Shown here: positions 9,373 through 56,030 of the stretch, in pieces | Numbering within the stretch: position 1 is the stretch's first letter | How the letters are laid out: each line of letters opens with the position of its first letter | Origin: Streptomyces nigrescens | GTDB taxonomy: Bacteria; Actinomycetota; Actinomycetes; Streptomycetales; Streptomycetaceae | Assembly: GCA_024349765.1 (NCBI GenBank) | Contig: AP026073.1 | Location: 1,364,001-1,428,000 of the forward strand | DNA length: 64,000 nt | Reading direction: 5' to 3' | Notes under the pieces: model-generated | Told to the model about the DNA's origin: nothing | What the model saw: only the letters and a program-made list of their open reading frames with translations | Databases searched by the model: none | Position numbers and translations under genes: made by a program

Positions 9373-9637
9373 CGTACGTTTTCGGCTGGCCCGCCGTGGG
9401 GGTTGCTGTTTTTTCGCCTTCGGCGGGGTGGGGTTTAGGGCCGGGGGCGCCCACCGGCGCGAGGGGGCGGCCCGGAGGCGCCTGTTGTGTGGACGTAAAG
9501 CGTCAGCAGTCCACACAACAGGCGCCGGAGGGCCGAACCCGCACCCCCCACCACCAGGCGCCCCCGGCCCAACAACCCCACGCCCGCCGAAGGCGGAAGA
9601 ACCCCAGCCCCCACGGCGGGCCAGCCGAAAACGTACG
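9373..9637. repeat. 265-bp near-perfect palindromic element (repeat family copy A)
   Basis: The whole gap between the serine hydrolase and the Rsm22 gene is one long inverted repeat. The outer arms are exact over 30 bp (9373-9402 against 9608-9637, beginning CGTACGTTTTCGGCTGGC). The middle arms pair imperfectly. The centre is the invariant core at 9485-9518, with arms TTGTGTGGAC and GTCCACACAA around a 14-base spacer; around it the pairing extends to GGCGCC on both sides. The same core occurs at 31461, 38386 and 55692. It could work as a strong bidirectional terminator or be a mobile palindromic unit. Confidence 0.85.
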
Positions 9638-9643
9638 TAGAAT
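9638..9643 (+). promoter_or_regulatory. probable -10 box of a leaderless promoter for the Rsm22 gene
   Basis: TAGAAT lies seven bases before the ATG at 9651, and no Shine-Dalgarno sequence is present. This spacing is typical of leaderless Streptomyces transcripts. It directly abuts the end of the palindromic element. Confidence 0.45.
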
Positions 9644-9650
9644 TTCGTCG

Positions 9651-10607
9651 ATGCACGACGAATTGCGCGCCGCACTGGCCGGCCTGCTCGACGGTCTGCC
9701 GCCCAAGCAGGCCGCGCAGGCCGTCGACCGGCTGATCGCCAACTACCGGGGACGCACCCCCACCGACGCCCCGGTCCTGCGCGACCGCGCGGACGTGGCC
9801 GCCTATGCGGCCTACCGGATGCCGGCCACCTTCGAGGCGGTGCGCGCCGCGCTGACCGCCTTCGCCGTCCGCGTCCCGGACTGGTCCCCGGCCACCCACC
9901 TCGACATCGGCGGCGGCACCGGTGCCGCGACCTGGGCCACCGCCGCCCTCTGGCAGGGGCACCACAGCACCGTCCTGGACTGGGCCCAGCCGGCCCTGGA
10001 CCTCGGCGCCGAACTCGCCGCCGGCATCCTTCCGGACACCACCTGGCGCCGCGGCACCATCGGCGAGGGCCTGACCGTCCCCGAGGGCACGGACCTGGTC
10101 ACCGTCTCCTACGTGCTCGGCGAACTCCGCCCCGAGGACCGCCGTGCGGTGGTCGCCGCGGCCGCCACCGCCACCGCCGTCGTCCTGATCGAACCGGGCC
10201 CCCCCGACGGCTACCTCCGCATCCGCGAGGCCCGCGACCAGCTCATCGAGGCCGGCCTGCGGATCGTCGCCCCCTGCCCGCACGCCGGGACCTGCCCGAT
10301 CGTGGTGGGCGAGGACTGGTGCCACTTCTCCGCCCGGGTCAGCCGCTCGTCCCTCCACCGCCAGGTCAAGGGCGGCGCGCTCCCGTACGAGGACGAGAAG
10401 TTCGCCTACGTCGCCGCGACCGCCCTCCCGGCCGAACCCGCCTCCGCCCGGATCGTCCGCAAACCACAGCTCCGCAAGGGCCAGGTCCTCCTCGACCTGT
10501 GCACCACGGACGAGGGGCTGCGGCGCACCACCGTCACCAAGCGGCACGGCGCGCAGTACCGCGAGGCCCGGGACGCCGCCTGGGGCGACAGCTGGCCCGG
10601 CGCCTGA
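9651..10607 (+). CDS. small ribosomal subunit Rsm22 family protein (methyltransferase fold)
   Basis: Member of the Rsm22/METTL17 family, which acts in small-subunit ribosome assembly. The N-terminal helical part (AVDRLIANYRG...VAAYAAYRMPATFEAV) matches the family. The SAM-binding glycine loop is THLDIGGGTGAATWA. A cysteine set, CPHAGTCPIV, then DWCHF and LLDLCTT, resembles the four-cysteine cluster that holds an iron-sulfur cluster in mitochondrial METTL17. The start at 9651 is set by homology and the leaderless promoter. Bacterial members are poorly characterised, and an rRNA methylation role is inferred only from the family. Confidence 0.85.
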   Translation: MHDELRAALAGLLDGLPPKQAAQAVDRLIANYRGRTPTDAPVLRDRADVAAYAAYRMPATFEAVRAALTAFAVRVPDWSPATHLDIGGGTGAATWATAALWQGHHSTVLDWAQPALDLGAELAAGILPDTTWRRGTIGEGLTVPEGTDLVTVSYVLGELRPEDRRAVVAAAATATAVVLIEPGPPDGYLRIREARDQLIEAGLRIVAPCPHAGTCPIVVGEDWCHFSARVSRSSLHRQVKGGALPYEDEKFAYVAATALPAEPASARIVRKPQLRKGQVLLDLCTTDEGLRRTTVTKRHGAQYREARDAAWGDSWPGA

Positions 10608-10628
10608 GCACGCCGGGCCCGGGCGGTC

Positions 10629-10805
10629 TCATCCCTTCCCGGTCGCCCGTTCCTGGAACTTGCGCAACAGCTCCTGCCGTTGGGCCTGCGCCCGGCCGCG
10701 GTCCGTGCCGCCCCGGCCGCCGCCGGCGCCGCCGCGCAGTGCTCCGCGCGACAGCTTGCTGCGGGTGCCGCCGACGCCGAGCATGTCCCCGTTGCCCTTG
10801 CTCAT
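10629..10805 (-). CDS. DUF6243-type small protein
   Basis: A 58-residue, highly charged, glycine-rich protein (SKGNGDMLGVGGTRSKLSRG ... ELLRKFQERATGKG) resembling the small Streptomyces DUF6243 family. The ATG at 10805 is supported by GGAGGA six bases upstream. It is divergent from the TetR gene at 10931 and shares its operator-rich promoter, so TetR control is likely. No transmembrane segment or cysteines. Function unknown. Confidence 0.75.
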   Translation of the reverse strand: MSKGNGDMLGVGGTRSKLSRGALRGGAGGGRGGTDRGRAQAQRQELLRKFQERATGKG

Positions 10806-10833
10806 GGGTTCCTCCTCCGTCGCACCGATAAAG

Positions 10834-10850
10834 CGAGACGATCCGTCTCG
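10834..10850. promoter_or_regulatory. TetR-type operator 1
   Basis: Palindrome CGAGACGATCCGTCTCG (arms CGAGACG/CGTCTCG) about 30 bp upstream of the DUF6243 start. It matches the two further sites at 10872-10906. Confidence 0.75.
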
Positions 10851-10871
10851 CGTAACGGGTTTCAGCATGCC

Positions 10872-10906
10872 CGAGACGTATCGTCTCGTCAAGACGATAC
10901 GTCTCG
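10872..10906. promoter_or_regulatory. tandem TetR-type operators 2 and 3
   Basis: Two 17-bp palindromes one base apart: CGAGACGTATCGTCTCG at 10872-10888 and CAAGACGATACGTCTCG at 10890-10906. They overlap the expected -35 region of the TetR gene, so autorepression is likely. Confidence 0.8.
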
Positions 10907-10918
10907 CCTAGCCCTCGC

Positions 10919-10924
10919 TACACT
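10919..10924 (+). promoter_or_regulatory. -10 box of the TetR gene, probably leaderless
   Basis: TACACT stands six bases before the ATG at 10931 with no ribosome binding site between. The tandem operators lie just upstream. Confidence 0.5.
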
Positions 10925-10930
10925 CGCCCC

Positions 10931-11557
10931 ATGGCCCACACCTCAGCCTCCTCCGCCGGCTCCGGCGCCAAAGCCCCCGACTCCTCCCGCCGCAGCGAGC
11001 GCTCCCGGCAGGCGATCTTCGACGCCGCGCTCGCGCTGGTCGGCGAGGTCGGCTACGACAAGCTCACGATCGAGGGCATCGCCTCCCGGGCCGGGGTCGG
11101 CAAGCAGACCATCTACCGCTGGTGGCCCTCCAAGGCCGCCGTCCTCCTGGACGCCTTCACCGCCGGCATCGACGAGGACTACGAGAAGGGCCTCCCGGAC
11201 ACCGGTGACCTCGCCGCCGACCTGAAGACCGTGCTCCGCGCGACCGCCGACGAATTCAACGACCACGCCTTCCAGGCCCCCTACCGCGCCCTCGCTGCGG
11301 CCGGCGCGAACGACGAGGAGCTCTCCCGCACCTTCGTCGCCCGGCTGATGGAGCCCGGCACCCAGGTCTACGTCAACCGGCTGCGACGGGCCCAGGAGGC
11401 CGGCGAGGTGGCCGCGGACATCGACGTACGGGTGGCTGTCGAGATGCTGCTGAGTCCCTTCTCACAGCGCTGGCTGATGCGCACCGGCGAATTGACCCAC
11501 GCCTTCGTCGACACCCTCGTCGACCAGGCATTGCGTGGTCTGCGGCCGCGGGACTGA
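10931..11557 (+). CDS. TetR/AcrR family transcriptional regulator
   Basis: One-component repressor of 208 residues. The N-terminal DNA-binding domain is complete: SRQAIFDAALALVGEVGYDKLTIEGIASRAGVGKQTIYRWWPSKAAVL, with recognition helix GKQTIYRWW. The ligand-binding C-terminal half (VNRLRRAQEAGEVAADIDVRVAVEMLLSPF) matches the AcrR-type C-terminal domain common in Streptomyces. It is divergent from the DUF6243 gene, and three near-identical palindromes lie between them. It most likely represses itself and that gene. The inducer is unknown. Confidence 0.92.
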   Translation: MAHTSASSAGSGAKAPDSSRRSERSRQAIFDAALALVGEVGYDKLTIEGIASRAGVGKQTIYRWWPSKAAVLLDAFTAGIDEDYEKGLPDTGDLAADLKTVLRATADEFNDHAFQAPYRALAAAGANDEELSRTFVARLMEPGTQVYVNRLRRAQEAGEVAADIDVRVAVEMLLSPFSQRWLMRTGELTHAFVDTLVDQALRGLRPRD

Positions 11558-11720
11558 CCCGGCCGGCCGAGCGCCCGGCACGCGCGGCGACCTGTCGGTG
11601 ATGGCCGGAAATGCCGGTATTCGACATCCTTCCGTTCACCCCGGATCCGCACACCGGTCACCCCGGGCGCAGGATGGTGGCAGCATTGATCCCAGACCAC
11701 CGCTCGAAGTGAGGGGATAG

Positions 11721-12473
11721 ATGGAACGCAAGAGCAGGTTCTCCCAGTGGCTGCGTCGGCCGAAGAGCGGATCGGACGGCGGCGATACGGACACGGGATC
11801 GGTTGCCGCGCGCGGCCGCGAGGACCTGCTGCTGGCCGCGGCCGATGCGGGCTTCCCGATCGCCCCGGCGGCGCACCCCTCCGGCTACGGCTGTTCCTGT
11901 GAGCGCATCGGCTGTCCCACCCCCGGACGCCACCCCATCTCCTTCGGCTGGCAGACCGTCGCCACCACCGACCGCGACAAGGTCGCCGCCTGGGTCCGCA
12001 CCCTCCCGCAGGCCAACTTCATCACCGCCACCGGCATCGCCCACGACGTCCTGGACGTCCCCGTCGAGGCCGGCCGCAGCGCCCTCGGACGACTGGAGGC
12101 GGCCGGCATCGAGGTCGGCCCGATCACCCTCAGCGGCGCCGGCTTCGGCGACGGCCGGATGCTGTTCTTCACCGCCACCCGCGGCACCCCGGACGACGAG
12201 GACGAGTGGTGGCCCTGTGAGCTGGACTGCCACCCCGAGACCATGGACGAGCATCCCGGCCTGCGCTGGCACTGCCGCGGCAGCTACGTCCTCCTGCCGC
12301 CCTCGACCCTCCCCGGCGAACAGCCCGCGGTGACCTGGCTGCGCGGCCCCGAACTCCCGCTGCCCGACCCGCTGACGCTGCTGGAGTCGCTCACCGACGC
12401 CTGCGCGGAGTTCAACGAGCGCGCCGACCGCGAGCACTACCACGAGAGCGCGGCCTGGCCGATCGGCCGCTGA
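11721..12473 (+). CDS. stand-alone bifunctional DNA primase/polymerase (prim-pol) N-terminal-type protein
   Basis: A 250-residue protein resembling the archaeo-eukaryotic prim-pol domain of actinobacterial elements. It has an N-terminal AADAGFPIAPAAHP strand-helix, a Cys-rich CSCERIGCPTPGRHPISFGW loop, the NFITATG segment, and a WHCRGSYVLLPPS block. At the place where active primases have a D-x-D/E metal motif it reads VLDVPVEAG, so at least one acidic ligand is shifted or lost. There is no helicase domain and no phage genes nearby. It may therefore be a conserved Streptomyces descendant with a regulatory or inactive role. Confidence 0.75.
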   Translation: MERKSRFSQWLRRPKSGSDGGDTDTGSVAARGREDLLLAAADAGFPIAPAAHPSGYGCSCERIGCPTPGRHPISFGWQTVATTDRDKVAAWVRTLPQANFITATGIAHDVLDVPVEAGRSALGRLEAAGIEVGPITLSGAGFGDGRMLFFTATRGTPDDEDEWWPCELDCHPETMDEHPGLRWHCRGSYVLLPPSTLPGEQPAVTWLRGPELPLPDPLTLLESLTDACAEFNERADREHYHESAAWPIGR

Positions 12474-12512
12474 CCGCCGCGCCCCGCGCACCGTTCTTCA
12501 CGTCCCCCGCCG

Positions 12513-12559
12513 TACGGACAAGGGGCCGCCGGAAACCTCCCGGCGGCCCCTTGTCCGTA
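12513..12559. terminator. bidirectional intrinsic terminator
   Basis: A perfect 20-bp stem (TACGGACAAGGGGCCGCCGG and its complement) with a seven-base AC-rich loop. It lies between the convergent prim-pol gene and the lipoprotein gene. Confidence 0.85.
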
Positions 12560-12609
12560 TCGCGTTGTCGGTATCGCGCGGTACGTCGCCCGCCCGTCTC
12601 CCGGCCGGC

Positions 12610-13599
12610 CTACAGCGGCTTGACCGACGTCTTGGCCTCGCGTCGGTTCAGCACCGTGATCTTGCCCCCGGAGCCCTTCGCCGGCACCGTCACCGCCTGC
12701 GCGGAGACCGTGGTGAAGGCCATCCGGCTGGTCTTCTTCACCGGCCCGTCCATCAGGCCCTGCAACTGGGCCGGGACCGTGATCACCGAACCCGCGGAGA
12801 CCGTCTTCTGCTGGTGGTAGAAGGTCGAGAAGAACACCAGCGCGCCGCCGTCCGTGGTCCGCAGCGCCACCGGCGGGAAGCCGGCCGCGGTGTCCTCCCA
12901 CAGGATGCGGGCGCCCGGCTGGTTGGTGTCCCGCGCGCGCCGGGCCCGCCAGCCGTCGGTGTTCGGCCCGGACGCGAAGATGCTGCCCTTGCCGGTGTTG
13001 AGGTAGTCGGCGTACGTACGGCTCAGCTTGCCCGGATCGACCGCCAGCCCGGACTTGCCGCCGGCCGGCACCGCCTCGGCGAAGCCGTCCTGGTCCGTCT
13101 TCAGCTCCGGCGCCTTGTTGCCGGCGAACTCCGCCAGGTAGACCGCCCGCCACTTCTCCTTGATGCCGTTGCGGCTGAACACCAGGAACCAGCGGCTGTA
13201 CGAACCGTCGGCCGCCTTGCGGTTGCTGGCCGCGTCGGCGATGAAGTACTTCGGCCAGCCCGCCTGCTTGGGGATCGTGAAGTGCGCGTCCTTGAACGCC
13301 AGGGCGGGGTAGGCCGGGTCGCCCTGCGGCTTCAGCGCGTGCGCCGCCTTTATCCCCGCCTGGTCGAGGGCGAGCAGTGCGCCGCCCTCGAACGAGGGAT
13401 TGAGCTCCGGATCGAGCTGCCGCTTGGCCTTGTTGAAGCCGGCGGCGAAGCGCTGCAGCGCCTTGGCGCCGTCAGCCTTCGTCACCGCCGGCAGCATCTC
13501 CCGCTCGCCGTGCACCGTCATGCACCCGCTCAGTATCACCAGCGCCGTCGCTGCCGACGTCACTGTTGCGGGCACCCGGAACGGCGACCTGCGTGTCAT
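12610..13599 (-). CDS. putative lipoprotein at the end of the efe operon
   Basis: A 329-residue exported protein with a basic N-region, a hydrophobic core and the lipobox LSGC (TSAATALVILSGCMTV). The mature part has no motif I can assign to an enzyme. It contains WFLVFSRNG and LVFFSTFYHQQ segments typical of a conserved Streptomyces lipoprotein of unknown role. The ATG at 13599 is chosen from the signal peptide. Its 5' end overlaps the 3' end of efeU by 128 nt on the same strand, implying co-transcription, although the overlap is unusually long. A link to iron is inferred only from position. Confidence 0.75.
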   Translation of the reverse strand: MTRRSPFRVPATVTSAATALVILSGCMTVHGEREMLPAVTKADGAKALQRFAAGFNKAKRQLDPELNPSFEGGALLALDQAGIKAAHALKPQGDPAYPALAFKDAHFTIPKQAGWPKYFIADAASNRKAADGSYSRWFLVFSRNGIKEKWRAVYLAEFAGNKAPELKTDQDGFAEAVPAGGKSGLAVDPGKLSRTYADYLNTGKGSIFASGPNTDGWRARRARDTNQPGARILWEDTAAGFPPVALRTTDGGALVFFSTFYHQQKTVSAGSVITVPAQLQGLMDGPVKKTSRMAFTTVSAQAVTVPAKGSGGKITVLNRREAKTSVKPL

Positions 13600-14464
13600 G
13601 GGGCTCGGGCTCCTTCGGGGCGACCGGGGCGGACTGGGTGGCCGCCGGGGTGGCACGATTCGGCGCCACCCTACCGGGGGCGAGGAAGAAGCCGAGCGTG
13701 GGGATCAGATACAGAGCCCACACCGTGACCTGGAGGACGGTCGGGTCCGGCTGGAAGTTGAAGATGCCCTTCAGCAGGGTGCCGTACCAGCTGTCGGCCG
13801 GGATCTGCGCGCTGATGTCGAACGCCTGCGCGCTCAGCCCGGGCAGCACGGCCGCCTCCTGCAGGTCGTGGAAGCCGTACGCCAGCACGCCCGCCGCGAC
13901 CACGACCAGCATCCCGCCGGTCCAGGTGAAGAACTTCGCGAGGTTGATCCGCACCGCACCGCGGTAGAACAGCCAGCCCAGCAGCACGGCGGTCGCCAGC
14001 CCCAGCAGCGCCCCGACCAGCGGCCGTACGCCGTCGTTGGCGGACTGCGCGGCGGTCCAGATGAACAGCGCGGTCTCCAGGCCCTCCCGGCCCACCGACA
14101 GGAACGCGGTGACCACCAGGGCCACGGTGCCCATCTGCAGCGCCGCGTCCAGCTTGCCGTGCAGCTCCTTCTTCAGGTGCCGCGCGGTGCGCCGCATCCA
14201 GAAGACCATCCACGTCACCAGGCCCACGGCGATGATCGACAGCGAACCGCCGAGCGCCTCCTGCGCCTTGAACGTCAGGGTCTCCGAGCCGAACTGCAGC
14301 GCCGCCCCGAACGCGAACGACAGCACCACGGCGAGCGCGATGCCGAGCCAGACCGGGCGCAGCGCCTCCCGCCGGCCGGTCTTGACCAGATAGGCGATGA
14401 GGATGCAGACGACGAGGCTGGCCTCCAGCCCCTCGCGCAGTCCGATCAGGTAATTGCCGAACAC
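13472..14464 (-). CDS. efeU: EfeU/FTR1-type iron permease
   Basis: Membrane permease of the oxidase-dependent iron transporter family, about 330 residues with seven hydrophobic segments. Both iron-binding REGLE motifs are present: LREGLEASLVV near the N-terminus and GREGLETALFI in the fourth helix. The C-terminal tail after the last helix (APGRVAPNRATPAATQSAPV...) is long, polar and Pro/Ala-rich. It is this tail that overlaps the downstream lipoprotein gene. It is third in the order efeO-efeB-efeU. With EfeO and EfeB it should import iron after periplasmic oxidation of ferrous iron. Confidence 0.92.
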   Translation of the reverse strand: MFGNYLIGLREGLEASLVVCILIAYLVKTGRREALRPVWLGIALAVVLSFAFGAALQFGSETLTFKAQEALGGSLSIIAVGLVTWMVFWMRRTARHLKKELHGKLDAALQMGTVALVVTAFLSVGREGLETALFIWTAAQSANDGVRPLVGALLGLATAVLLGWLFYRGAVRINLAKFFTWTGGMLVVVAAGVLAYGFHDLQEAAVLPGLSAQAFDISAQIPADSWYGTLLKGIFNFQPDPTVLQVTVWALYLIPTLGFFLAPGRVAPNRATPAATQSAPVAPKEPEPHDTQVAVPGARNSDVGSDGAGDTERVHDGARRAGDAAGGDEG

Positions 14465-14531
14465 GCCGGTCCCTTCCCTTCTTTGCTACGGCCGCCCGTT
14501 CCGGACGGCGATCTCGCCGGTGGCGGCGGTG

Positions 14532-15866
14532 TCAGGCGAACAGCTCCCGGCCCCACCAGTCGTCCGCCTTCCGGACGCCCGGCGGCACCGCGAAGACCGC
14601 GGAACCCACGTGCTGGATGTACTCGTTGAGCGCGTCGTTCTGCGACAGCTTCTGCTGCAGCGGCACGAAGCCGTGCCGCACGTCGCGCTGGTAGGCGAGG
14701 AAGAACAGTCCGGCGTCCAGCCGGCCCAGTCCGTCCGTCCCGTCGGTGAAGGAGTAGCCGCGGCGCAGGATGCGGACCCCGCCGTTGGAGTCGGGGTGCG
14801 CGAGCCGGACGTGCGCGGTCGGCAGCATCGACTTCAGGTGCGGGGCGTCCCGCTCGTGCTTCCGGCCGGCCGGTGCGCCTTCGCCCTTGGTGCGGCCGAA
14901 GACGTCCTCCTGCTCCTTGAGCGAGGTGCGGTCCCAGGTCTCGATGTGCATCCGTATCCGGCGCGCGACGAGGTACGAACCGCCCGCCATCCAGCCGGCC
15001 TTGCCCTTCTCGTCGCCGTCGCCGACCCAGACGTGCTTGTCGAGCGCCGCGGTGTCGGTGCCGGCGAGGTTGTGGGTGCCGTCCTTGAAACCGAACATGT
15101 TGCGCGGGGTCTGCGCCTCCGGCGTCGTCGAGGACGTCTTGCCGAAGCCCAGCTGCGACCAGCGGATGGCGACCTTGCCGAAGCCGATCCGGGCGAGGTT
15201 GCGGATGGCGTGCACCGCCACCTGCGGGTCGTCCGCGCACGCCTGGACGCACAGGTCGCCGCCGCTGCGGGACTTGTCGAGGTTGTCGCCGGGGAACTGC
15301 GGCAGGTCGATCAGCGCCGCGGGCCGCCGGTCCTTGATGCCGAACCGGTCCTTGCCGTCCTTCTCGAACAGCGACGGGCCGATGCCGAAGGTCAGGGTGA
15401 GCCGGGACGGCGGCAGACCGAGCGCCTCACCGGTGTCGTCCGGCGGCGCCTCCGCCAGCCCGCCGACCGCGCCGTCACCGACCGCGTCACCGGCCGTCAT
15501 CCGCGCGGCGGCCTTGGTCCACTCCTTGAGCAGGGCGATCAGCTCGTCGCGGTCGTCGGTGGTGACGTCGAACGCGGCGAAGTGCAGCCGGTCCTGGACG
15601 GCGGTGGCGATACCCGCCTGGTGCGCGCCGTGGAAGGCCACCGCGGCGCCCGCGGTGGCGTCCGCGCCGGCCGGCTGGACGTCGTTGCCGGTCCGCAGCG
15701 CCGCGGCCGTACCGCCGGCCGCCACCGCGCCGAGCGCCAGCCCCGCACCGCCCCAGCCGAGCAGTGAACGCCGGGACGGCGCCCGCCCGTCGGTGCCCTG
15801 CGAGGCCTCGGGGGCCTTCGTCACGTCGTCCGTCTTGTCTGCCATACCGTCCTCGTCCTGCGTCAT
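14532..15866 (-). CDS. efeB: EfeB deferrochelatase/DyP-type heme peroxidase, Tat-exported
   Basis: Dye-decolorising-type heme peroxidase of 444 residues. The twin-arginine signal is PSRRSLLGWGGAGLALGAVAAGG. The DyP signature GFKDGTHN is present (MFGFKDGTHNLAGTD), as is the conserved distal Arg region (LVARRIRMHIETWDR). EfeB oxidises Fe(II) or removes iron from heme outside the membrane in partnership with EfeO and EfeU. It lies 24 bases after efeO and 67 bases before efeU, consistent with one operon under iron control. Confidence 0.93.
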   Translation of the reverse strand: MTQDEDGMADKTDDVTKAPEASQGTDGRAPSRRSLLGWGGAGLALGAVAAGGTAAALRTGNDVQPAGADATAGAAVAFHGAHQAGIATAVQDRLHFAAFDVTTDDRDELIALLKEWTKAAARMTAGDAVGDGAVGGLAEAPPDDTGEALGLPPSRLTLTFGIGPSLFEKDGKDRFGIKDRRPAALIDLPQFPGDNLDKSRSGGDLCVQACADDPQVAVHAIRNLARIGFGKVAIRWSQLGFGKTSSTTPEAQTPRNMFGFKDGTHNLAGTDTAALDKHVWVGDGDEKGKAGWMAGGSYLVARRIRMHIETWDRTSLKEQEDVFGRTKGEGAPAGRKHERDAPHLKSMLPTAHVRLAHPDSNGGVRILRRGYSFTDGTDGLGRLDAGLFFLAYQRDVRHGFVPLQQKLSQNDALNEYIQHVGSAVFAVPPGVRKADDWWGRELFA

Positions 15867-15890
15867 CCTGATCCCCTGCCCGGCGGCGGA

Positions 15891-17042: not shown

Positions 17043-17127
17043 ACGGGGCTCCAAGCGGGCTAGGACGAAGAAACGGTGCAGTGGAACGGTAATCAATGGC
17101 CGGAGCCACCACTAAGGCGGCCCTAAC

Positions 17128-17346: not shown

Positions 17347-17370
17347 GTCACTGTCTCCTGGGGGTGCTCC

Positions 17371-18139: not shown

Positions 18140-18154
18140 CACCAATCCCTCGAT

Positions 18155-31302: not shown

Positions 31303-31535
31303 CACGCAGCTGACTGCCGCCCACGTAGCTGGCTGTCCCGCCGTTGCGCGCTTTGCGGCGCCTCCCACGTACCTGTCTGCGGCGCCGCGGGTGTTGTTCG
31401 CCGTTGCGCCTGCGGCGGGCTGGGTGGTTTGTGGGTGCGGTGACGGGCCTCCGGGGCCGGTTGTGTGGACTGCTGACGCTTTACGTCCACACAACCGGCC
31501 CCTCCGGCCCGTCCCCTCCCGTGAGGGGGAAGGAA
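31303..31535. repeat. mosaic palindromic repeat family, copy B (half-length)
   Basis: Begins just after the F420 reductase stop. It holds two tandem modules containing CACGTAGCTGGCTGTCCCGC and CACGTACCTGTCTGC, each followed by a GCCGTTGCGC run. A CGGGCTGGGTGGTTTGTGGG stretch and the invariant core at 31461-31494 (TTGTGTGGAC-N14-GTCCACACAA) follow. It matches the left half of copy D in the same orientation. The rest of this 366-bp gap up to 31665 has no recognisable gene. Confidence 0.8.
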
Positions 31536-31665
31536 ACGGTGGGTGGGGGTGGGCGTGATCCCAGGTGTAAGGGGCGCCGTGGCCGAGAGCGAGGGGCAGC
31601 TGAGGGCGGGGTCGGGGATGGGGGACACTGGGAGGGACCGCCTACTCCCGACAGGAGCTCATCCC

Positions 31666-38081: not shown

Positions 38082-38519
38082 CCCACGTACCTGGCTGTCC
38101 CGCCGCGGGGCTTGCTCGCCGTTGCGCTTTGCGGCGCCTCGCACGTACCTGTCTGCGGCGTCGCGGGTCGTCTCGCCGTTGCGCCTGGCGGCGGGCGTTT
38201 GTGTTTTGGGTGCGGTGCCGGCCCTCCAGACTTCGTCCTCCGGTCCAGCCCCTCCCGTGGGTGGGGAGTTTCCAAGCTGGTTGGGGGCGTGCGTTGTCTG
38301 TTGACCGCACGCGTGTGGGCATTACGTGCACCCCCGCCGTCCTTAATTTTCCCTCTCACGGGAGGGGACGGGCCGGAGGGGCCGGTTGTGTGGACGTAAA
38401 GCGTCAGCAGTCCACACAACCGGCCCCGGAGGCCCGTCACCGCACCCAACAACCACCCAGCCCGCCGCAGGCGCAACGGCGAGCGAGCCCCGCGGCGGGA
38501 AAGCCAGGTACGTGGGAGG
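38082..38519. repeat. mosaic palindromic repeat family, copy C (full length)
   Basis: Fills the gap between panB and the DrrA-like gene. The left part has CACGTACCTGGCTGTCCCGC and CACGTACCTGTCTGC modules. The middle part reads CCAGACTTCGTCCTCCGGTC, followed by CCCTCCCGTGGGTGGGGAG. The right part has the invariant core at 38386-38419 and ends in GGAAAGCCAGGTACGTGGGA just before the panB stop. Its reverse complement is colinear with copy D (55588-56030) over about 440 bp. No gene is visible within it. Confidence 0.85.
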
Positions 38520-46341: not shown

Positions 46342-46375
46342 TCCGCCAGTGTAATCGTCTTTCTGACGCGATGTG

Positions 46376-48533: not shown

Positions 48534-48848
48534 GGAAGAGAGCACCTCGAAACGGTGTCGGTGTGAGCAAGGTCGGCTGCAAGTCGGCTGACGGAGCTTC
48601 CGTCGCGGACTCCCGGGGACGTCGGTGGCGGGGCGCGCTACCGGGCGCGCGGCACCGACGTGAGGGCGAGGAGTATGGGGCGCGGTGGCGCGGATATCGG
48701 CCACCGGCCGGGCAGCAGACCCGCGCGTATCGTCCCCGTGCACCGCGGCAGCCGGGCGCACCACGCGGCGGCGGCCGTGCCCTGTGCACGCATCGCGGAC
48801 CTCCCGACGAGGACGGCGGACACCGGAGGGAGCCGCCGGTTGGCACCC

Positions 48849-48863
48849 TACCCCCGAGGGGTA
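48849..48863. promoter_or_regulatory. putative CsoR copper-sensing operator
   Basis: TACCCC-CGA-GGGGTA palindrome between the multicopper oxidase and DUF998 genes, of the form bound by CsoR repressors of actinobacteria. The rest of this 467-bp gap (48534-49000) shows no gene I can support. Confidence 0.5.
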
Positions 48864-49000
48864 TGACCCTCCACCGGAGCGCCGCCGAACGGGGCGTCGC
48901 CCGCCTATCCTTGGCCTTCCCGCCCCACCGGCGGGCCCCGGGCACCTCCGGCGCGGCCGGGGACCCCCGTACGGCCGGCCGGGTCCGCCCGAGCACCTGG

Positions 49001-49876
49001 ATGTCCGTGACCGGTACCCGTCGTCCCGCCGCAGCCGCCGTGCGCCGCCGCCGGGTGGCCGCCGCCGTGCTGCTGCTCGGCGCCGCGGCCTACACCGCGT
49101 GGGTCCTGGAGCTGGTGCTCGCCACCGGCCTCGATCCGGTGCGCGCCTACGTCAGCGAACTCGCCGCCGCCGACCAGCCGCTGGGCGGCCTCTTCCGCGC
49201 CACGGACCTGACCGCCGGCCTGCTGGTACTGGCCGGCGCACTGACCGCGATGACGGCGACGGCGATGACGACGGCGGCGGGGAGGGCGTCCGTAGTGACG
49301 ACGTCCGCGGTGACGACGACGGAGGTGACGACGTCCGGGGCGACAGCGCCCCGGGTGACAGCGCCCCGGGTGACGGCGCCCGCGCCGGCGGCCGGCCGGA
49401 CCGCCAAGGCCGGCTGGGTGGCGCTCGCCGTCTTCGGGGCCGCCACCGCCGTCGACTCCCGGCTCCCGCTGAGCTGCGCCCCCACCAGCGATCCGGTCTG
49501 CGCGGCCCGGGAGACCGCGGGCCTGGTGCCGGCCACCCACACCGCGCACGCGGTCAGCAGCACCTGCGCGATGCTCGGCGCCCTCGCCGCGCTGCTCCTG
49601 CTGACCGCGGCCGCCCGGCGCCACGACCGCCGGTCGCCGCTCGCCCGTTACGGGCCCTGGCTGGTGCTGGCCGAACTGGCCGCCACGTGCTGGACGCTGG
49701 CCTCCGTCGCGGCCTTCTCCGCGGGCCGGGGCACCTGGGCCCTCGGTGCCGGCCAGCGGCTCCAGGTCCTGCTGGTCGCCCTCTACCTGGCGCTGCTCGC
49801 ACTCCACCTGGCCCGGCCGGACCGGGCGGCCCGCACCGAACCCGTCACCGAGGCGAAGGAGATCCCCCACCGATGA
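49001..49876 (+). CDS. DUF998 membrane protein
   Basis: About 291 residues with six predicted membrane helices. It begins VAAAVLLLGAAAYTAWVLELVLATGL, followed by the family motif VRAYVSELAAADQPLGGLFRATDL. An extra loop after the third helix (TAMTATAMTTAAG...TAPRVTAPRVTAP) is made of Thr/Ala/Val repeats and has no counterpart I know of in the family. Later conserved block: FGAATAVDSRLPLSCAPTSDPVC. Start is tentative: ATG 49001 or GTG 49007, with another in-frame ATG at 48863. It overlaps the downstream hydrolase by ATGA. Confidence 0.8.
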   Translation: MSVTGTRRPAAAAVRRRRVAAAVLLLGAAAYTAWVLELVLATGLDPVRAYVSELAAADQPLGGLFRATDLTAGLLVLAGALTAMTATAMTTAAGRASVVTTSAVTTTEVTTSGATAPRVTAPRVTAPAPAAGRTAKAGWVALAVFGAATAVDSRLPLSCAPTSDPVCAARETAGLVPATHTAHAVSSTCAMLGALAALLLLTAAARRHDRRSPLARYGPWLVLAELAATCWTLASVAAFSAGRGTWALGAGQRLQVLLVALYLALLALHLARPDRAARTEPVTEAKEIPHR

Positions 49877-50760
49877 GCAGCCACCGCCTCCCCACCCCCG
49901 GCCGGTTCGTGCGCGTCGACGGGGTGCCGCTGCACGTCGTGACGGAGGGCGCAGGACCGCTCTGTGTGCTCAGCGGCGGCCTCGGCATGGCGTGGTTCGA
50001 CTGGGACGCGGTCGCCGCGCTGCTCGCCCCCTACCGCACCGTCGTCCGCTTCGACCGCCCCGGCCTCGGGCTCAGCGCCCGGGCGCCCGCGCCGCCCACC
50101 CTGGCCGCCGAGGCGGACCGGATCGCCCGGCTCCTCGACGCGCTCGGCCACGGCGGCCCGGCCACGATCGTCGGCCACTCCCTCGCCGGGTTCCACGCCG
50201 AGGCGTTCGCCCGGCTGCACCCGGACCGCTGCGCCGGAGTCGTCCTCGTCGACGGCAGCATCGAGGAGGACCCGCGGCCCCTGCTGCCGCGGGCGGTGCG
50301 GACTGCCTGGGCGGGCGGGGTGGCCGGGGCGCTGTCCGCGGCCGGTCTGCCGCGTGCCCTGGGCCCGGCCGCCCGCCGCCTGGTGGGCCGCGCCTCGACG
50401 GTCGGCAGCCACCCGCCGCACCCCTGGGAGCGGGCCGGCTACCGCACCAGCCGGGTCGCCCGGGCCTGCGTCCTGGAGAACGCCACCTACCCCTACCAGG
50501 CCGCCGAACTCGCCGCGCTGCGCCGGGCCCGCCCGCTGCCACCCGTCCCGGTGACGGTCCTGGCGGCCTACGACGGCAGCGAGACCGCCGGCCGGCTGCG
50601 CTGGCTGGAGCGGCAGCGGGCGCTCGCCGCGGAGCTCGGTGGACGGTTCGCGGTCGCCGCGCCCGCGGGCCACCTGGTGATGGCCGACGTCCCGGAATCC
50701 GTGGCCCGCGCGGTCCTGGACCTCACCGACACCGGCCGGGACGCCACCCCGCTCCGGTAG
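49873..50760 (+). CDS. alpha/beta hydrolase
   Basis: 295-residue alpha/beta-fold hydrolase. The oxyanion-side motif is SGGLGMAWFDW, the nucleophile elbow is VGHSLAG (S103), the acid is probably Asp in LAAYDGSE and the base is His in PAGHLVMADVPE. No signal peptide. It overlaps the DUF998 gene by four bases (ATGA), implying joint function, perhaps in membrane lipid or ester metabolism. Substrate is not indicated. Confidence 0.88.
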   Translation: MSSHRLPTPGRFVRVDGVPLHVVTEGAGPLCVLSGGLGMAWFDWDAVAALLAPYRTVVRFDRPGLGLSARAPAPPTLAAEADRIARLLDALGHGGPATIVGHSLAGFHAEAFARLHPDRCAGVVLVDGSIEEDPRPLLPRAVRTAWAGGVAGALSAAGLPRALGPAARRLVGRASTVGSHPPHPWERAGYRTSRVARACVLENATYPYQAAELAALRRARPLPPVPVTVLAAYDGSETAGRLRWLERQRALAAELGGRFAVAAPAGHLVMADVPESVARAVLDLTDTGRDATPLR

Positions 50761-51116
50761 CGGGTGCGCCGGCCCGCCCCGCCCCAGCGCTCCCGTCCCC
50801 GCCCGGTCACCACCCGATCACCACCCGAAACCGTCGGCGACCGGCGGGGAACGCCCCGCTCAACGGCTGGTCAACGGCCCCTCAGGGCGGCTTCAAGACT
50901 GGACCAAGCGGCCCGATTGCCGCCGCCGGCTGCGCTGAGCTTGCTCGCTGCGGGAAAGGATGCGGGAAGGAAGCGGAGCGGGGGTTACGGGTCGGCGGTT
51001 CTGGTTCAGGCCAAGGGTGCGTAATGTGACGGTAACCCCCTCACGTGATACTGGTTGCCACGCGCGTCGTTCGACGTACGTGGACAGGCCGATTGACCTG
51101 CAAGGATTGGTGACCC
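50761..51116 (+). promoter_or_regulatory. 356-bp gap upstream of glnA2
   Basis: No supported gene. The right end contains AAGGATTGG as ribosome site before ATG 51117. A TTGCCA-N16-TACGTG pair at 51055-51082 could be a promoter. A GTAATGTGACGGTAAC stretch near 51020 resembles half of a GlnR box but not a complete one. The region before 51000 is low in features apart from GC-rich runs. Confidence 0.3.
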
Positions 51117-52478
51117 ATGGACAAGCAGCAGGAGTTTGTGCTCCGGACGCTGGAAGAGCGCGACATCCGCTTCGTCCGGCTGTGGTTCACCGATGTGCTC
51201 GGATTCCTGAAGTCGGTGGCGGTGGCGCCCGCCGAGCTGGAGCAGGCCTTTGACGAGGGCATCGGTTTCGACGGGTCGGCCATCGAGGGGTTCGCCCGGG
51301 TGTACGAATCCGACATGATCGCCAAGCCGGACCCCGGCACCTTCCAGATCCTGCCCTGGCGCGCCGAGGCCCCCGGCACCGCCCGGATGTTCTGCGACAT
51401 CCTGATGCCGGACGGCTCGCCCTCGTACGCCGACCCCCGGTACGTCCTCAAGCGGATCCTGGCCAAGACCTCCGACCTCGGCTTCACCTTCTACACCCAC
51501 CCCGAGATCGAGTTCTTCCTGCTCAAGGACAAGCCCGTGGACGGCTCCCGGCCGATCCCCGGCGACTCCTCCGGCTACTTCGACCACACCCCGCAGAACG
51601 TCGGCATGGACTTCCGCCGCCAGGCGATCACGATGCTGGAGTCGATGGGCATCTCGGTGGAGTTCAGCCACCACGAGGGCGCCCCCGGCCAGCAGGAGAT
51701 CGACCTGCGGTACGCCGACGCGCTCTCCACCGCCGACAACATCATGACCTTCCGGCTGGTCATGAAGCAGGTCGCGCTGGAGCAGGGTGTCCAGGCGACG
51801 TTCATGCCCAAGCCGTTCTCGGAGTACCCCGGCTCCGGCATGCACACCCACCTCTCCCTCTTCGAGGGCGACCGCAACGCCTTCCACGAATCCGGCGCGG
51901 AGTACCAACTCTCCAAGGTGGGCCGCTCGTTCATCGCCGGACTGCTCCAGCACGCCGGCGAGATCTCTGCCGTCACCAACCAGTGGGTGAACTCCTACAA
52001 GCGCATCTGGGGCGGCGCCAACCGCACCGCGGGCGCCGGCGGCGAGGCCCCCTCGTACATCTGCTGGGGCCACAACAACCGCTCCGCGCTGATCCGCGTC
52101 CCGATGTACAAGCCCGGCAAGATGGGCTCGACCCGGGTCGAGGTCCGCTCGATCGACTCCGGCGCCAACCCCTACCTCACCTACGCCGTCCTGCTCGCCG
52201 CCGGCCTCAAGGGCATCGAGGAGGGCTACGAGCTCCCGGCCGGCGCCGACGACGACGTCTGGGCGCTCACCGACTCCGAGCGCCGGGCGATGGGCATCGA
52301 GCCGCTGCCGCAGAACCTCGGCGAGGCCATCGAGCTCATGGAGCGCAGCGAACTCGTCGCCGAAACCCTCGGCGAGCACGTCTTCGACTTCTTCCTCCGC
52401 AACAAGAAGCAGGAGTGGGAGGAGTACCGCTCGGAGGTCACGGCCTTCGAGCTGCGCAAGATGCTGCCCGTGCTCTGA
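51117..52478 (+). CDS. glnA2: glutamine synthetase-like enzyme GlnA2 (probable gamma-glutamylpolyamine synthetase)
   Basis: Type I glutamine synthetase fold, 453 residues. The N-terminal beta-Grasp part is RFVRLWFTDVLGFLKSVAV. The catalytic domain has FDGSAIEGF, THPEIEFFLL, GSGMHTHLSLF and NSYKRIWGGANR. The adenylylation Tyr of true GlnA (DLYELPPE region) is replaced: here the sequence is DDDVWALTDSE, with W382 at that place. In S. coelicolor the GlnA2 homologue has been reported to glutamylate polyamines rather than ammonia. I transfer that role by overall similarity and its place before glnE. Confidence 0.88.
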   Translation: MDKQQEFVLRTLEERDIRFVRLWFTDVLGFLKSVAVAPAELEQAFDEGIGFDGSAIEGFARVYESDMIAKPDPGTFQILPWRAEAPGTARMFCDILMPDGSPSYADPRYVLKRILAKTSDLGFTFYTHPEIEFFLLKDKPVDGSRPIPGDSSGYFDHTPQNVGMDFRRQAITMLESMGISVEFSHHEGAPGQQEIDLRYADALSTADNIMTFRLVMKQVALEQGVQATFMPKPFSEYPGSGMHTHLSLFEGDRNAFHESGAEYQLSKVGRSFIAGLLQHAGEISAVTNQWVNSYKRIWGGANRTAGAGGEAPSYICWGHNNRSALIRVPMYKPGKMGSTRVEVRSIDSGANPYLTYAVLLAAGLKGIEEGYELPAGADDDVWALTDSERRAMGIEPLPQNLGEAIELMERSELVAETLGEHVFDFFLRNKKQEWEEYRSEVTAFELRKMLPVL

Positions 52479-52505
52479 GCCACCGCGCCCCCGAGAGGCT
52501 GGACC

Positions 52506-55500
52506 ATGGCACTACCCGCTCCGCAGGGACGGCGGAGCAGCACGTTCGGCCGGCTGCTGAGACACGGGTTCACCGACCCCTCGGCGGCCGGGGAACTGCT
52601 CGACGCCCCCGAACTGGCAGCCGTCCGTGACGACTCGGTCCTCCTGGAGGCGTTCGGCGGCACCGCCGACCCGGACCTGGCCCTGCGGGGTCTGGTCCGG
52701 CTGGTGGAGGCGCTGCCGGAGGACGAGCAGCAGGCGCTGCTGAGCACCCTCGTCGCCGCGAAACCGCTGCGCGACCGGCTGCTGGGCGTGCTGGGCGCCT
52801 CCGAGGCGCTCGCCGACCACCTCGTTCGCCACCCCGGCGACTGGCGGTCGCTGGTCACCTACGAGTCCGCCGATCTGCACCCGACCACCCCCGAGTTCGA
52901 GCAGGCGCTCGCCGAGGGCATCTGGGGCGAGCAGGGCGCCGACCGGCCCCGCGCCGACGCGCTGCGCGCCGCCTACCGCCGGGCCCTCCTCGGCATCGCC
53001 GCCCGCGACGTGTGCGGCACGACCGACGTCGCCGAGGCCGCGGCGGAACTCGCCGACCTGGCCACCGCCACCGTCCGCGCCGCCCTGCAGATCTCCTACG
53101 AAGAGGCGCCCGGCGACGCCGCGGTGTGCCGGCTGGCCGTCATCGGCATGGGCAAGTGCGGCGGCCGGGAGCTGAACTACGTCTCCGACGTCGACGTCAT
53201 CTTCGTCGCCGAGGCCAAGGACGGCGTCGACGAGGCCAAGGCACTGCAGGCCGCGACCCGGATCGCCGCCCGGATGATGCGGCTGTGCTCGGACAACACC
53301 GTCGAGGGCACGATCTGGCCGGTCGACGCCAACCTGCGCCCCGAGGGCCGCAACGGCCCGCTGGTGCGCACCCTCAGCAGCCACCTCGCCTACTACCAGC
53401 GCTGGGCCAAGACCTGGGAGTTCCAGGCCCTGCTCAAGGCCCGCCCGATGGCCGGCGACCTCGGCCTGGGCCAGGAGTACGTCGACGCGCTCGCCCCGAT
53501 GGTGTGGGAGGTGGCCGAGCGGGACAACTTCGTCTCCGACGTCCGCCAGATGCGCCGCCGGGTCGTCGAGAACATCCCCGCGGCGCAGGTCGAACGCGAA
53601 CTCAAGCTCGGCCCCGGCGGTCTGCGCGACGTCGAATTCGCCGTCCAGCTCCTGCAGTTGGTGCACGGCCGCAGCGACGCCACCCTCCGCAGCGCCACCA
53701 CCCTGGACGCCCTGGCCGCGCTCGCGGCCGGCGGCTACGTGGGACGTCAGGACGCCGCCGCCCTGGACGCCGCCTACCGCTTCCTGCGCACCCTCGAACA
53801 CCGCATCCAGCTGATCCGCCTGCGCCGCACCCACCTGATGCCCGAGGACGAGGCCGAACTGCGCCGCCTGGCACGGTCGTTGGGACTGCGGACCGAGCCG
53901 GTTGACACCCTCCGCAGGGAGTGGAGGTGGCACGCCAGGGAAGTGCGCCGACTGCATGAGAAGCTCTTCTACCGCCCCCTGCTCGATGCCGTCGCCCATC
54001 TGGAGCCCGGCGAGGCCCGGCTGTCGGCCAAGGCCGCCGGTCACCGCCTCGAAGCGCTCGGCTACGCCGACCCGGTGGCCGCGCTGCGCCACCTGGAGGC
54101 GCTGGCGTCCGGCGTGACCCGCAAGGCCGCCATCCAGCGGACCCTGCTCCCGGTGCTGCTCGCCTGGTTCGCGGACTCCGCCGACCCGGACGCCGGACTG
54201 CTCAACTTCCGCAAGGTCTCCGACGCGCTCGGCAAGACCCCCTGGTACCTCCGGCTGCTGCGCGACGAGGGCGCGGCCGCCGAGAACCTCGCCCGGGTGC
54301 TGTCGGCCGGCCGGCTCGCCCCCGACCTGCTCCTGCGCGCCCCCGAGGCGGTCGCCCTGCTCGGCGCCCCCGACGGCCTGCAGTCACGGAGCCGCGCCGC
54401 CCTGGAACAGGAGGTGCTGGCCGCGGTCGGCCGCGCGGACGGTGCGGAGGCGGCGGTCGCGGCGGCCCGCGGGGTGCGCCGCCGGGAGATGTTCCGCACC
54501 GCCGCGTCCGACGTGATCGGCGCGTACGGCACGGAGTTCAGCCCCGCCGACACCGACCACGGCCACTCCGTCGACGCGGTCGGCTCCGCGCTCTCCGACC
54601 TCAACGCCGCCACCCTCGCCGGTGCGCTGCGCGCCGCGGTCCGCGCGCAGTGGGGCGACACCCTGCCCACCCGTTTCGCGGTGATCGGCATGGGCCGCTT
54701 CGGCGGCCACGAGCTGAGCTACGGCTCGGACGCCGACGTCCTCTTCGTCCACGAACCCCGCGAGGGCGCCGACGAACAGGAGGCCGCCAAGGCCGCCCAC
54801 GCGGTCGCCAACGAAATGCGCCGGCTGCTCCAACTCCCGTCCTCCGACCCGCCGTTGCTCATCGACGCGGACCTCCGCCCGGAGGGCCGCAGCGGCCCGC
54901 TGGTGCGCACCCTCGCCTCGTACGCGGCGTACTACCGGCGCTGGTCGCTGGTGTGGGAGGCCCAGGCACTGCTGCGCGCCGAACCGGTCGCCGGCGACGC
55001 CGACCTCGGGGAGCGGTTCATCGAGCTGGTCGACCCGCTGCGCTACCCGGCCGAGGGCCTGGGCGACGAGGCGGTGCGCGAGATCCGCAAGCTCAAGGCC
55101 CGGATGGAGTCCGAACGGCTGCCCCGCGGCGCGGACCCGACCACCCACGCCAAGCTGGGCCGCGGCGGCCTGAGCGACGTCGAGTGGACCGTCCAGCTGC
55201 TCCAGATGCAGCACGGCTGGGAGATCCCCGGCCTGCGCACCACCCGCACCCGCGAGGCGCTGTCCGCCGCACACGCGGCCGGGCTGATCGCCACCGAGGA
55301 CGCCCAGATACTGGACGAGGCGTGGGTGCTGGCGGCGCGGGTCCGCAACGCGGTGATGCTCGTCCGCGGCCGTCCCGGCGACACGTTCCCGGTCGACGGC
55401 CGGGAACTGGCCGCGGTCGGCCGCTACCTCGGCTACGAGGACGGCCTCAGCCGCCGCCCCTCCGAAAACAGCCGCGGCAACGAGGCCTCCGGCCGCAGCG

Positions 55501-55577
55501 GCGAGATGATCGACGACTACCGCCGGATCACACGACGGGCGCGCAGCGTCGTCGAGCGCGTGTTTTATGGCGCCTGA
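52506..55577 (+). CDS. glnE: glutamine synthetase adenylyltransferase/adenylyl-removing enzyme
   Basis: Bifunctional regulator of glutamine synthetase, 1023 residues. Two nucleotidyltransferase domains are evident: the N-terminal removing domain with ELNYVSDVDVIF (E222-D230) and the C-terminal adenylylating domain with HELSYGSDADVLF (E736-D744). Each is followed by a LRPEGR(N/S)GPLVRTL block and a helical domain (LGPGGLRDVEFAVQLLQL; LGRGGLSDVEWTVQLLQM). Near the C-terminus an insert of about 15 residues (LSRRPSENSRGNEASG) interrupts the usual Y-x(2)-G-x-SGEM stretch. It follows glnA2 by 27 bases, likely one operon. The target is the main GlnA encoded elsewhere. Confidence 0.95.
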   Translation: MALPAPQGRRSSTFGRLLRHGFTDPSAAGELLDAPELAAVRDDSVLLEAFGGTADPDLALRGLVRLVEALPEDEQQALLSTLVAAKPLRDRLLGVLGASEALADHLVRHPGDWRSLVTYESADLHPTTPEFEQALAEGIWGEQGADRPRADALRAAYRRALLGIAARDVCGTTDVAEAAAELADLATATVRAALQISYEEAPGDAAVCRLAVIGMGKCGGRELNYVSDVDVIFVAEAKDGVDEAKALQAATRIAARMMRLCSDNTVEGTIWPVDANLRPEGRNGPLVRTLSSHLAYYQRWAKTWEFQALLKARPMAGDLGLGQEYVDALAPMVWEVAERDNFVSDVRQMRRRVVENIPAAQVERELKLGPGGLRDVEFAVQLLQLVHGRSDATLRSATTLDALAALAAGGYVGRQDAAALDAAYRFLRTLEHRIQLIRLRRTHLMPEDEAELRRLARSLGLRTEPVDTLRREWRWHAREVRRLHEKLFYRPLLDAVAHLEPGEARLSAKAAGHRLEALGYADPVAALRHLEALASGVTRKAAIQRTLLPVLLAWFADSADPDAGLLNFRKVSDALGKTPWYLRLLRDEGAAAENLARVLSAGRLAPDLLLRAPEAVALLGAPDGLQSRSRAALEQEVLAAVGRADGAEAAVAAARGVRRREMFRTAASDVIGAYGTEFSPADTDHGHSVDAVGSALSDLNAATLAGALRAAVRAQWGDTLPTRFAVIGMGRFGGHELSYGSDADVLFVHEPREGADEQEAAKAAHAVANEMRRLLQLPSSDPPLLIDADLRPEGRSGPLVRTLASYAAYYRRWSLVWEAQALLRAEPVAGDADLGERFIELVDPLRYPAEGLGDEAVREIRKLKARMESERLPRGADPTTHAKLGRGGLSDVEWTVQLLQMQHGWEIPGLRTTRTREALSAAHAAGLIATEDAQILDEAWVLAARVRNAVMLVRGRPGDTFPVDGRELAAVGRYLGYEDGLSRRPSENSRGNEASGRSGEMIDDYRRITRRARSVVERVFYGA

Positions 55578-55587
55578 CCACGCTTTA

Positions 55588-56030
55588 CGGTGCCTCCCAC
55601 GTACCCGTCTGTCCCGCCGCGGTTGTTCTCGCCGTTGCGCCTGCGGCGGGCTGGGTGGTTTGTGGGTGCGGTGACGGGCCTCCGGGGCCGGTTGTGTGGA
55701 CTGCTGACGCTTTACGTCCACACAACCGGCCCCTCCGGCCCGTCCCCTCCCGTGAGAGGGAAAGTTAAAGCCGGTGGGGGTGCAGGTAATGCCCACGAGC
55801 GTGCGGGCAACGGATGACGCCCGCCCCCAACCAGCTTCGAAACTCCCACTCACGGGAGGGGCTGGACCGGAGGACGAAGTCTGGAGGGCCGGCACCGCAC
55901 CCGACAACACCACGCCCGCCGCCAGGCGCAACGGCGACCAAGCCCCGCGGCGGGAGAGACGGGTACGTGCGGGGCGCCGCAAAGCGCGCAACGGCGAGCA
56001 AGACCCGCGGCGGGTCAGACGGCCACGTGG
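55588..56030. repeat. mosaic palindromic repeat family, copy D (full length)
   Basis: Fills the gap between the convergent glnE and PAP2 genes and supplies the last codons of the latter. Begins TGCCTCCCACGTACCCGTC and carries the invariant core at 55692-55725. A GCCCGTCCCCTCCCGTGAGA hairpin and a GGGGCTGGACCGGAGGACG block follow. It ends with two modules containing GGGTACGTGCGGGGC and CGGCCACGTGGGG. It is the inverse of copy C at 38082. No gene is visible inside. Confidence 0.85.

What the first reader, a model, noticed from the sequence alone, without database searches (positions are those of the whole stretch)
9485..55725. Dispersed palindromic repeat family with an invariant 34-bp core
The core TTGTGTGGAC-N14-GTCCACACAA occurs at 9485-9518, 31461-31494, 38386-38419 and 55692-55725. 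All 34 bases are identical between copies apart from orientation, including the 14-base spacer (TGCTGACGCTTTAC). A hairpin that needed only its arms would not preserve its loop, so the spacer is probably recognised by a protein or RNA, or the copies spread recently. Each core sits in a larger module (0.2-0.45 kb) with shared blocks such as CACGTACCTG and GCCGTTGCGC. All copies lie in gaps that follow gene 3' ends. I do not know this family under any name.
Basis: seen in the sequence. Interest (0 to 1): 0.78.

Follow-up and report, generated by a model that had tools for sequence, protein, structure and literature searches.

The report
Dispersed Streptomyces hairpins with fixed apex
A bacterial chromosome carries dozens of DNA palindromes just behind genes whose stems differ but stay self-complementary while their tip stays almost fixed, which suggests that an unidentified factor reads the folded tip.

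Summary
In detail: four identical 34-bp cores. The genome has 64 exact copies of the 22-bp inner core (56 with the full 34 bp) and five with a shorter loop. All listed places are in contig C1, none in the 1.07-Mb C2. Copies favour convergent gene pairs (32 of 62, against 17.5% of background junctions; home-made gene caller).

54 of 64 copies have an inverted partner hairpin. Across Streptomyces the arms diverge but stay complementary, while the apex follows a rule: GGAC-T-GC-(TTC/TGC/TGNC)-GC-TTTAC-GTCC. On the other strand it reads GC-GNA-GC or GC-GNNA-GC, the formula of extra-stable DNA mini-hairpins (PMC4686876, passages). Sister species carry different loop letters and arms at the same sites: concerted evolution.

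Best reading: REPIN-like non-coding palindromic elements whose folded apex is bound by an unidentified factor, homogenised in place. I found no mobilising enzyme, target duplication or binding protein; the RAYT-type transposase family is absent from this genome. A role of the RNA at gene ends is the main rival.

The parts
9374..9639 (-). minor-subfamily element (ends CGTTTTCGG 9377-9385 and CCGAAAACGTACG 9625-9637); core reads TGCTGACGCTTTAC on the minus strand; boundaries approximate
   Evidence: S. endophytica keeps a shortened version of this element without the core
9485..9518 (-). 34-bp hairpin core of the 9485 element
31320..31560 (+). half element without partner hairpin: two CACGTA-type end units plus hairpin; boundaries approximate
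   Evidence: the element is missing at this site in S. endophytica
31461..31494 (+). 34-bp hairpin core
38084..38514 (-). full element: end units, core hairpin, spacer, partner hairpin, end units
   Evidence: present in S. endophytica, absent in NRRL F-4489, reduced to outer units in NRRL S-337
38386..38419 (-). 34-bp hairpin core
38229..38238 (+). tip of the shortened partner hairpin (GACTTCGTCC on plus, GGACGAAGTC on minus)
55598..56030 (+). full element behind the glnE-type gene; right boundary approximate (the PAP2-domain ORF 56015-56848 runs into the last end unit)
55692..55725 (+). 34-bp hairpin core
55872..55881 (-). tip of the shortened partner hairpin (GGACGAAGTC on plus)

Best explanation
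These are non-coding dispersed palindromic elements that work like REPINs: usually two inverted hairpins about 175 bp (own main family) or 200-260 bp (other genomes) apart, set between outer inverted units, in gaps behind genes. Shown by sequence: the arms diverge but stay Watson-Crick complementary, while the apex GGRC-T-GC-(3-4 nt)-GC-TTTAC-GYCC is kept; copies persist at the same sites in sister species while hairpin letters change in many copies together. Inferred: the complementary strand folds into a GNA/GNNA mini-hairpin flanked by an asymmetric GTAAA/A bulge when the DNA is single-stranded; an unidentified trans-acting factor binds it; and copies are overwritten in place by a donor copy (gene conversion or transposase-made single strands annealing to the site). 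Original dispersal by a single-strand transposase is plausible but the enzyme is not found here.
For: 64 exact 22-mers plus 5 short-loop copies in this genome. Partner hairpin in 54 of 64 copies, including 14 of 14 tandem ++ and 5 of 5 divergent gaps, so the pair is one unit and not one hairpin per gene. Covariation on 47 distinct hairpins: 188 double-change cells against 72.5 in shuffles, score 0.574 against 0.143 shuffled and 0.054-0.140 when slid. Loop conservation not produced by the query: loop left open gives only TTC or TGC in 150 listed of 152 hits; flank-anchored, loop-agnostic scan gives the same loops in 137 of 138 hairpins, one of them with CCCTAC for TTTAC (its loci were fetched by loop, partners were not). 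Of 206 stem-filtered hairpins, 204 have TTC, TGC or TGNC with intact T and TTTAC. GNA or GNNA loops on two G-C pairs are the stated formula of extra-stable mini-hairpin DNA (PMC4686876, passages). Concerted change: S-337 has 59 TGTC among 82 hits and this genome none among 65; 15 S-337 TGTC hairpins sit at sites where this genome has TGAC or TTC, 14 of them with different arms. DNA rather than RNA level: in 62 distinct arm pairs top-strand G.T mismatches (5) are not commoner than A.C (8).
Against: No Y1 transposase (PF01797) in this genome, S. endophytica or F-4489; one in S-337, without element similarity around it. No clean empty site with target duplication: absent copies either left remnants or aligned too poorly. 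The DNA energy model does not predict the mini-hairpin for the isolated 21-22-mers. One loop (TGCGTC) breaks the GNA rule. The loci compared include 20 that I chose because they carried TGTC or TGGC, so its fraction is biased. Orthologous A halves (92%) are only a little more alike than paralogs (87-89%), and I had no neutral intergenic yardstick. Covariation could arise from quasi-palindrome template switching without selection. No binding protein was identified.
Confidence: 0.48

Rival explanations
1. An RNA-level 3' element: a bidirectional terminator or mRNA 3'-end stabiliser whose hairpin loop is bound by a protein or small RNA.
For: Convergent gaps 32 of 62 against 17.5% of junctions. 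In other genomes 0 of 96 listed hairpins lie inside a called ORF and 68 of 96 follow a same-strand gene end within 350 nt (two list rows are overlapping matches of hairpins already counted). RNA fold of the 76-nt hairpin -57.9 kcal/mol, z -9.16. Single copies behind the IF-2 gene (L389) and behind the ribosomal L1 gene inside a terminator-like palindrome with a T run (L390) read sense.
Against: No excess of G.U-type pairs on the sense strand (5 G.T, 8 A.C, 21 other mismatches). Full inverted pairs occur in tandem and divergent gaps. Several lone hairpins read antisense to the nearest gene end (L309, L418, L428, L430). No Rfam match at gathering; at E up to 1 only four microRNA families, far below their gathering scores.
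Confidence: 0.25
2. Passive palindromic repeats: spread long ago, arms kept complementary by template-switch correction, copies homogenised by ordinary RecA gene conversion, with no binding factor.
For: Concerted change between sister species and nearly perfect Watson-Crick arms (586 of 620 positions) are what these mutational processes give.
Against: They do not explain why the apex is kept across subfamilies and species whose arms and outer flanks have diverged.
Confidence: 0.15
3. A MITE moved by a DDE-type transposase through its outer CACGTA-type inverted ends; the hairpins are passengers.
For: Outer units are inverted and often in tandem; copies are dispersed and extragenic.
Against: Outer units differ between subfamilies and are absent in some single hairpins while the apex is kept; no target duplication seen.
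Confidence: 0.09
4. Integron attC-like recombination sites (folded bottom strand with unpaired bases and a variable tip).
For: Recalled parallel: conserved unpaired bases, free stem sequence, variable terminal insert.
Against: Inverted pairs rather than direct arrays; no integrase search was made; recalled attC box letters are not evident.
Confidence: 0.03

Closest known systems
REP / REPIN elements with RAYT transposases (PMC3116915: abstract and passages)
   Same: Palindromic, extragenic, lineage-specific families in tens of copies; doublets organised as inverted repeats
   Different: Larger unit (about 430 bp in the main family); folded apex kept while arms diverge; no Y1 transposase in this genome, S. 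endophytica or F-4489
Streptomyces telomere palindromes II and III bound by Tap (PMC4513846: passages)
   Same: GCA loops closed by sheared G:A pairing in single-stranded hairpins, bound by a host protein, in the same genus
   Different: Internal and dispersed. The genome's C1 ends are contiguous in S. endophytica (positions), so copies near the C1 record ends are not telomeric
Stem-loop repeat families at gene 3' ends such as Bor, Ype, Efa, NEMIS, ERIC (PMC1590033: passages)
   Same: Repeated palindromes enriched at the 3' side of genes
   Different: The three new families that paper reports are in Yersiniae, Bordetellae and Enterococci; its passages name no Streptomyces family
IS200/IS605 ends, e.g. 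IS608 (PMC5934647: passages)
   Same: Hairpin recognition and a TTAC tetranucleotide; every apex judged homologous here ends in TTAC
   Different: TTAC is a four-base coincidence until tested; IS608 ends carry a transposase gene between them, none seen here

Membership tests
REPIN (REP doublet) | Extragenic palindromes arranged as inverted doublets | tested here: met
   54 of 64 copies have an inverted partner; inverted pairs in other genomes. In the main family the partner is a shortened hairpin
REPIN (REP doublet) | RAYT (Y1 tyrosine transposase, PF01797) in the genome | tested here: not met
   0 in G000, G392, G393 and record W01; 1 in G194
REPIN (REP doublet) | Mobility: excision or insertion footprints | tested here: inconclusive
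   31461 absent in S. endophytica, 38386 absent in F-4489, but no clean footprint; other absences left remnants
MITE of a DDE transposon | Target-site duplication at clean empty sites | tested here: inconclusive
   none seen at the sites inspected
Streptomyces telomere (Tap-bound palindromes) | Location at replicon ends | tested here: not met
   copies throughout C1; S. endophytica positions 2,540,352 and 2,566,899 match own copies near the two C1 ends
Curated structured RNA families (Rfam 15) | Match at gathering score | tested here: not met
   0 in the window; 4 sub-threshold microRNA-type hits at E up to 1 in six loci
Integron attC | Integrase and directly repeated sites | not tested
   no integrase search; pairs seen here are inverted

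The most novel reading that the evidence does not exclude
A host-wide single-stranded-DNA hairpin system: dispersed chromosomal sites display a GNA/GNNA mini-hairpin with a TTAC-containing bulge that a dedicated factor (a Tap-like hairpin binder or a HUH-type nickase not covered by PF01797) recognises, and this factor copies the hairpin from site to site, so that the set of sites is fixed but its letters sweep together through the genome.
Probability: 0.25. Interest if true: 0.85.

Novelty: new variant of a known kind. Interest (0 to 1): 0.62.

Why it matters
It gives Streptomyces a palindromic repeat family that I found in none of my literature searches (open-licence full text only), and one with an unusually clear signature: free but complementary arms, a fixed apex that fits a known DNA mini-hairpin formula, and copies that evolve in concert at fixed sites. 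Because the apex is defined to the base, the factor that reads it can be fished with one oligonucleotide, which would test what keeps REP-like repeats alive in genomes without a RAYT gene.

Tried and rejected
One hairpin per convergent gene (terminator-like half elements): rejected, because tandem and divergent gaps also carry the full inverted pair. Strict sense orientation, suggested by L389, L390 and L314: weakened by lone hairpins reading antisense. Telomere location: rejected. A Y1 transposase as present mobiliser: not found in this genome. Viral carriage: 18 viral-contig hits of a 16-mer show no palindromic arms, 0 hits of the TTC 17-mer; no phage match; one plasmid record, Streptomyces sp. 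BHT-5-2 p1, has related ends and a TGC-loop hairpin. A conserved TCC/TCC internal loop in the lower stem: dropped, since F-4489 and G175 hairpins pair there. Calling the gene before the L314 hairpin pstB: dropped; Pfam found nothing in the frame I gave. Single 2-3-mismatch hits in other Streptomyces genomes were not followed except L127, L129 and L135, which showed no palindromic element. Weak model hits L410 and L412 lack the T/TTTAC apex and were not counted as members.

Full report
OBSERVATION. The core TTGTGTGGAC-N14-GTCCACACAA occurs exactly four times in the window, with an identical spacer in both orientations, and never in 100 shuffles. In the whole genome (9.33 Mb, contigs C1 of 8.25 Mb and C2) the 34-mer has 56 exact copies and 5 with two mismatches; in those five the two changes pair with each other. 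The 22-mer GGACTGCTGACGCTTTACGTCC has 64 exact copies and one three-mismatch copy, all on C1. Five further copies have the loop TGCTTCGCTTTAC.

ANATOMY. The commonest form is about 430 bp: one or more outer units beginning CACGTA, the core hairpin, a spacer, a partner hairpin in inverted orientation whose tip is shortened to GGAC-GAA-GTC, and outer units again. A partner lies 172-175 bp from the core in most copies, and at 203 or 249 bp where both hairpins are intact; in all 54 of 64 copies have one. A minor subfamily, to which the 9485 copy belongs, has different outer sequence but the same apex.

CONTEXT. With a home-made codon-composition gene caller, the 62 copies with a called gene on both sides are 32 convergent, 25 tandem and 5 divergent; junctions with a gap over 20 bp in sampled own and S. 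endophytica DNA are 37, 135 and 39. Convergent enrichment has p about 1e-9; divergent depletion p about 0.02, or 0.005 by gap length. Between C1 3,042,553 and 4,316,171 no copy is listed.

DISTRIBUTION. Among 392 Streptomyces genomes (own included) the pattern ACTGCT-N1-3-CGCTTTACGT matches 16; one, G243, is not palindromic. Rich genomes are own 69, S-337 (G194) 76, G064 50, G311 49, G175 29, G390 25, G191 24, G348 17, G294 14 and G265 10. The exact 20-mer in GTDB r220 genomes appears only in S. endophytica HNM0140, NRRL S-337 and NRRL F-4489; the tool may leave out the window's own genome and near kin. In 268 genomes of other genera of the class there are two hits, both with the TTC loop: L389 is a clean hairpin behind an IF-2 gene, L390 lies behind a ribosomal L1 gene inside a terminator-like palindrome whose arms are imperfect. 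A sample of 396 genomes of the phylum gives only the own genome. A covariance model over 394 genomes of the class adds G1085 with ten matches, whose closing pairs are GGGC/GCCC instead of GGAC/GTCC, and three Streptomyces matches (L407, L409, L411) with a longer or altered apex.

THE APEX RULE. In an alignment of 47 hairpins with distinct arms, 11 of 16 pairs have changes on both sides, 94.5% of cells are paired against 69.1% in shuffles, and the covariation score is 0.574 against 0.143 shuffled and at most 0.140 slid. The hairpins were gathered by the loop, so its constancy there is partly by construction. Two checks do not use it: with N1-6 in the loop, four genomes give 152 hits, of which all 150 listed are TTC or TGC; and a scan anchored on the 3' flank returns TGAC 97, TTC 23, TGTC 9, TGC 5, TGGC 2, one TTC with CCCTAC and one unrelated palindrome. 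On the complementary strand these loops are GTCA, GAA, GACA, GCA and GCCA, each on two G-C pairs: the GNA or GNNA formula given for extra-stable mini-hairpin DNA (PMC4686876, passages). Against this, the DNA energy model does not fold the isolated 21-22-mers that way, and one loop, TGCGTC, breaks the rule. In L407 the two G-C pairs are extended to GCGTC/GACGC around an insert, and in L411 a long insert lies between GC and GC-CTTAC, which is what a real mini-stem with a free tip would allow.

DNA OR RNA. In 62 distinct arm pairs, 586 of 620 positions are Watson-Crick; G.T on the core strand occurs 5 times, A.C 8 times, other mismatches 21 times (hairpins with fewer than 10 of 14 Watson-Crick pairs were dropped first, 9 of 215). 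A selected RNA helix should show wobble in excess. This leans to DNA but is a small count.

PERSISTENCE AND CONCERTED EVOLUTION. 49 of 64 own copies have at least one flank matching a core-bearing stretch of S. endophytica, one matches only an S-337 stretch, and 14 match none. For 26 well-flanked pairs the flanks are 98% identical, the A half 92%, the middle and partner 88%, against 87% and 82% for own paralogs. Among the 14, the 31461 site lacks the element in S. endophytica, the 9485 site keeps a version without the core, and L021 and L084 keep remnants. S-337 has 59 TGTC, 12 TGAC, 4 TGGC and 7 other forms among 82 hits; S. endophytica has 46 TGAC of 51; F-4489 has 8 TGTC of 10. In one search, 21 of 32 S-337 hairpins had a same-strand own counterpart: 16 differ in the loop (15 of them also in the arms), 2 in the arms only, 3 in neither; 20 of the S-337 regions had been chosen for TGTC or TGGC, so only the existence of the pattern, not its fraction, is informative. 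At one site this genome has TTC, S. endophytica TGAC and S-337 TGTC with other arms. Alignments show block-like replacement of stem and loop between like flanks.

MECHANISM. Shown: dispersed units, divergent complementary arms, kept apex, fixed sites, concerted letters. Inferred: recognition of the folded apex, and in-place overwriting. A parallel in the same genus is Tap, which binds single-stranded telomere hairpins with GCA loops closed by sheared G:A pairs (PMC4513846, passages). A second is the TTAC tetranucleotide used by IS608 (PMC5934647, passages); every apex I count as a member ends in TTAC. Neither is a test. PF01797 is absent from this genome, S. endophytica and F-4489 and present once in S-337.

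LITERATURE. Searches for Streptomyces REP, REPIN/RAYT, MITE, stem-loop families, convergent-gene repeats and the loop letters found no description of this family; only open-licence full text was searched.

Noticed in passing
own genome contig C2 and C1 3,042,553-4,316,171: No copy of the hairpin is listed in the 1.07-Mb second contig or in a 1.27-Mb stretch of C1.
   Followed up: no
L253 1000-2800: The S-337 site matching window 38386 keeps only outer units, and an IS5-like insertion (naming recalled) flanked by CTAG sits beside them.
   Followed up: partly
L331 1250-2500: In G064 a VOC-like gene (read by eye) lies between two half elements, while G348 has an ordinary element behind the corresponding gene.
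   Followed up: no
L167 4420-4480; L003 1590-1650; L004: Centres of minor-subfamily elements hold different terminator-like palindromes.
   Followed up: no
L220: A lone Y1 transposase gene in NRRL S-337 without element similarity around it.
   Followed up: partly
L407, L409, L411: Related hairpins in other Streptomyces genomes have a longer or altered apex, as if the tip were a free insertion point.
   Followed up: partly
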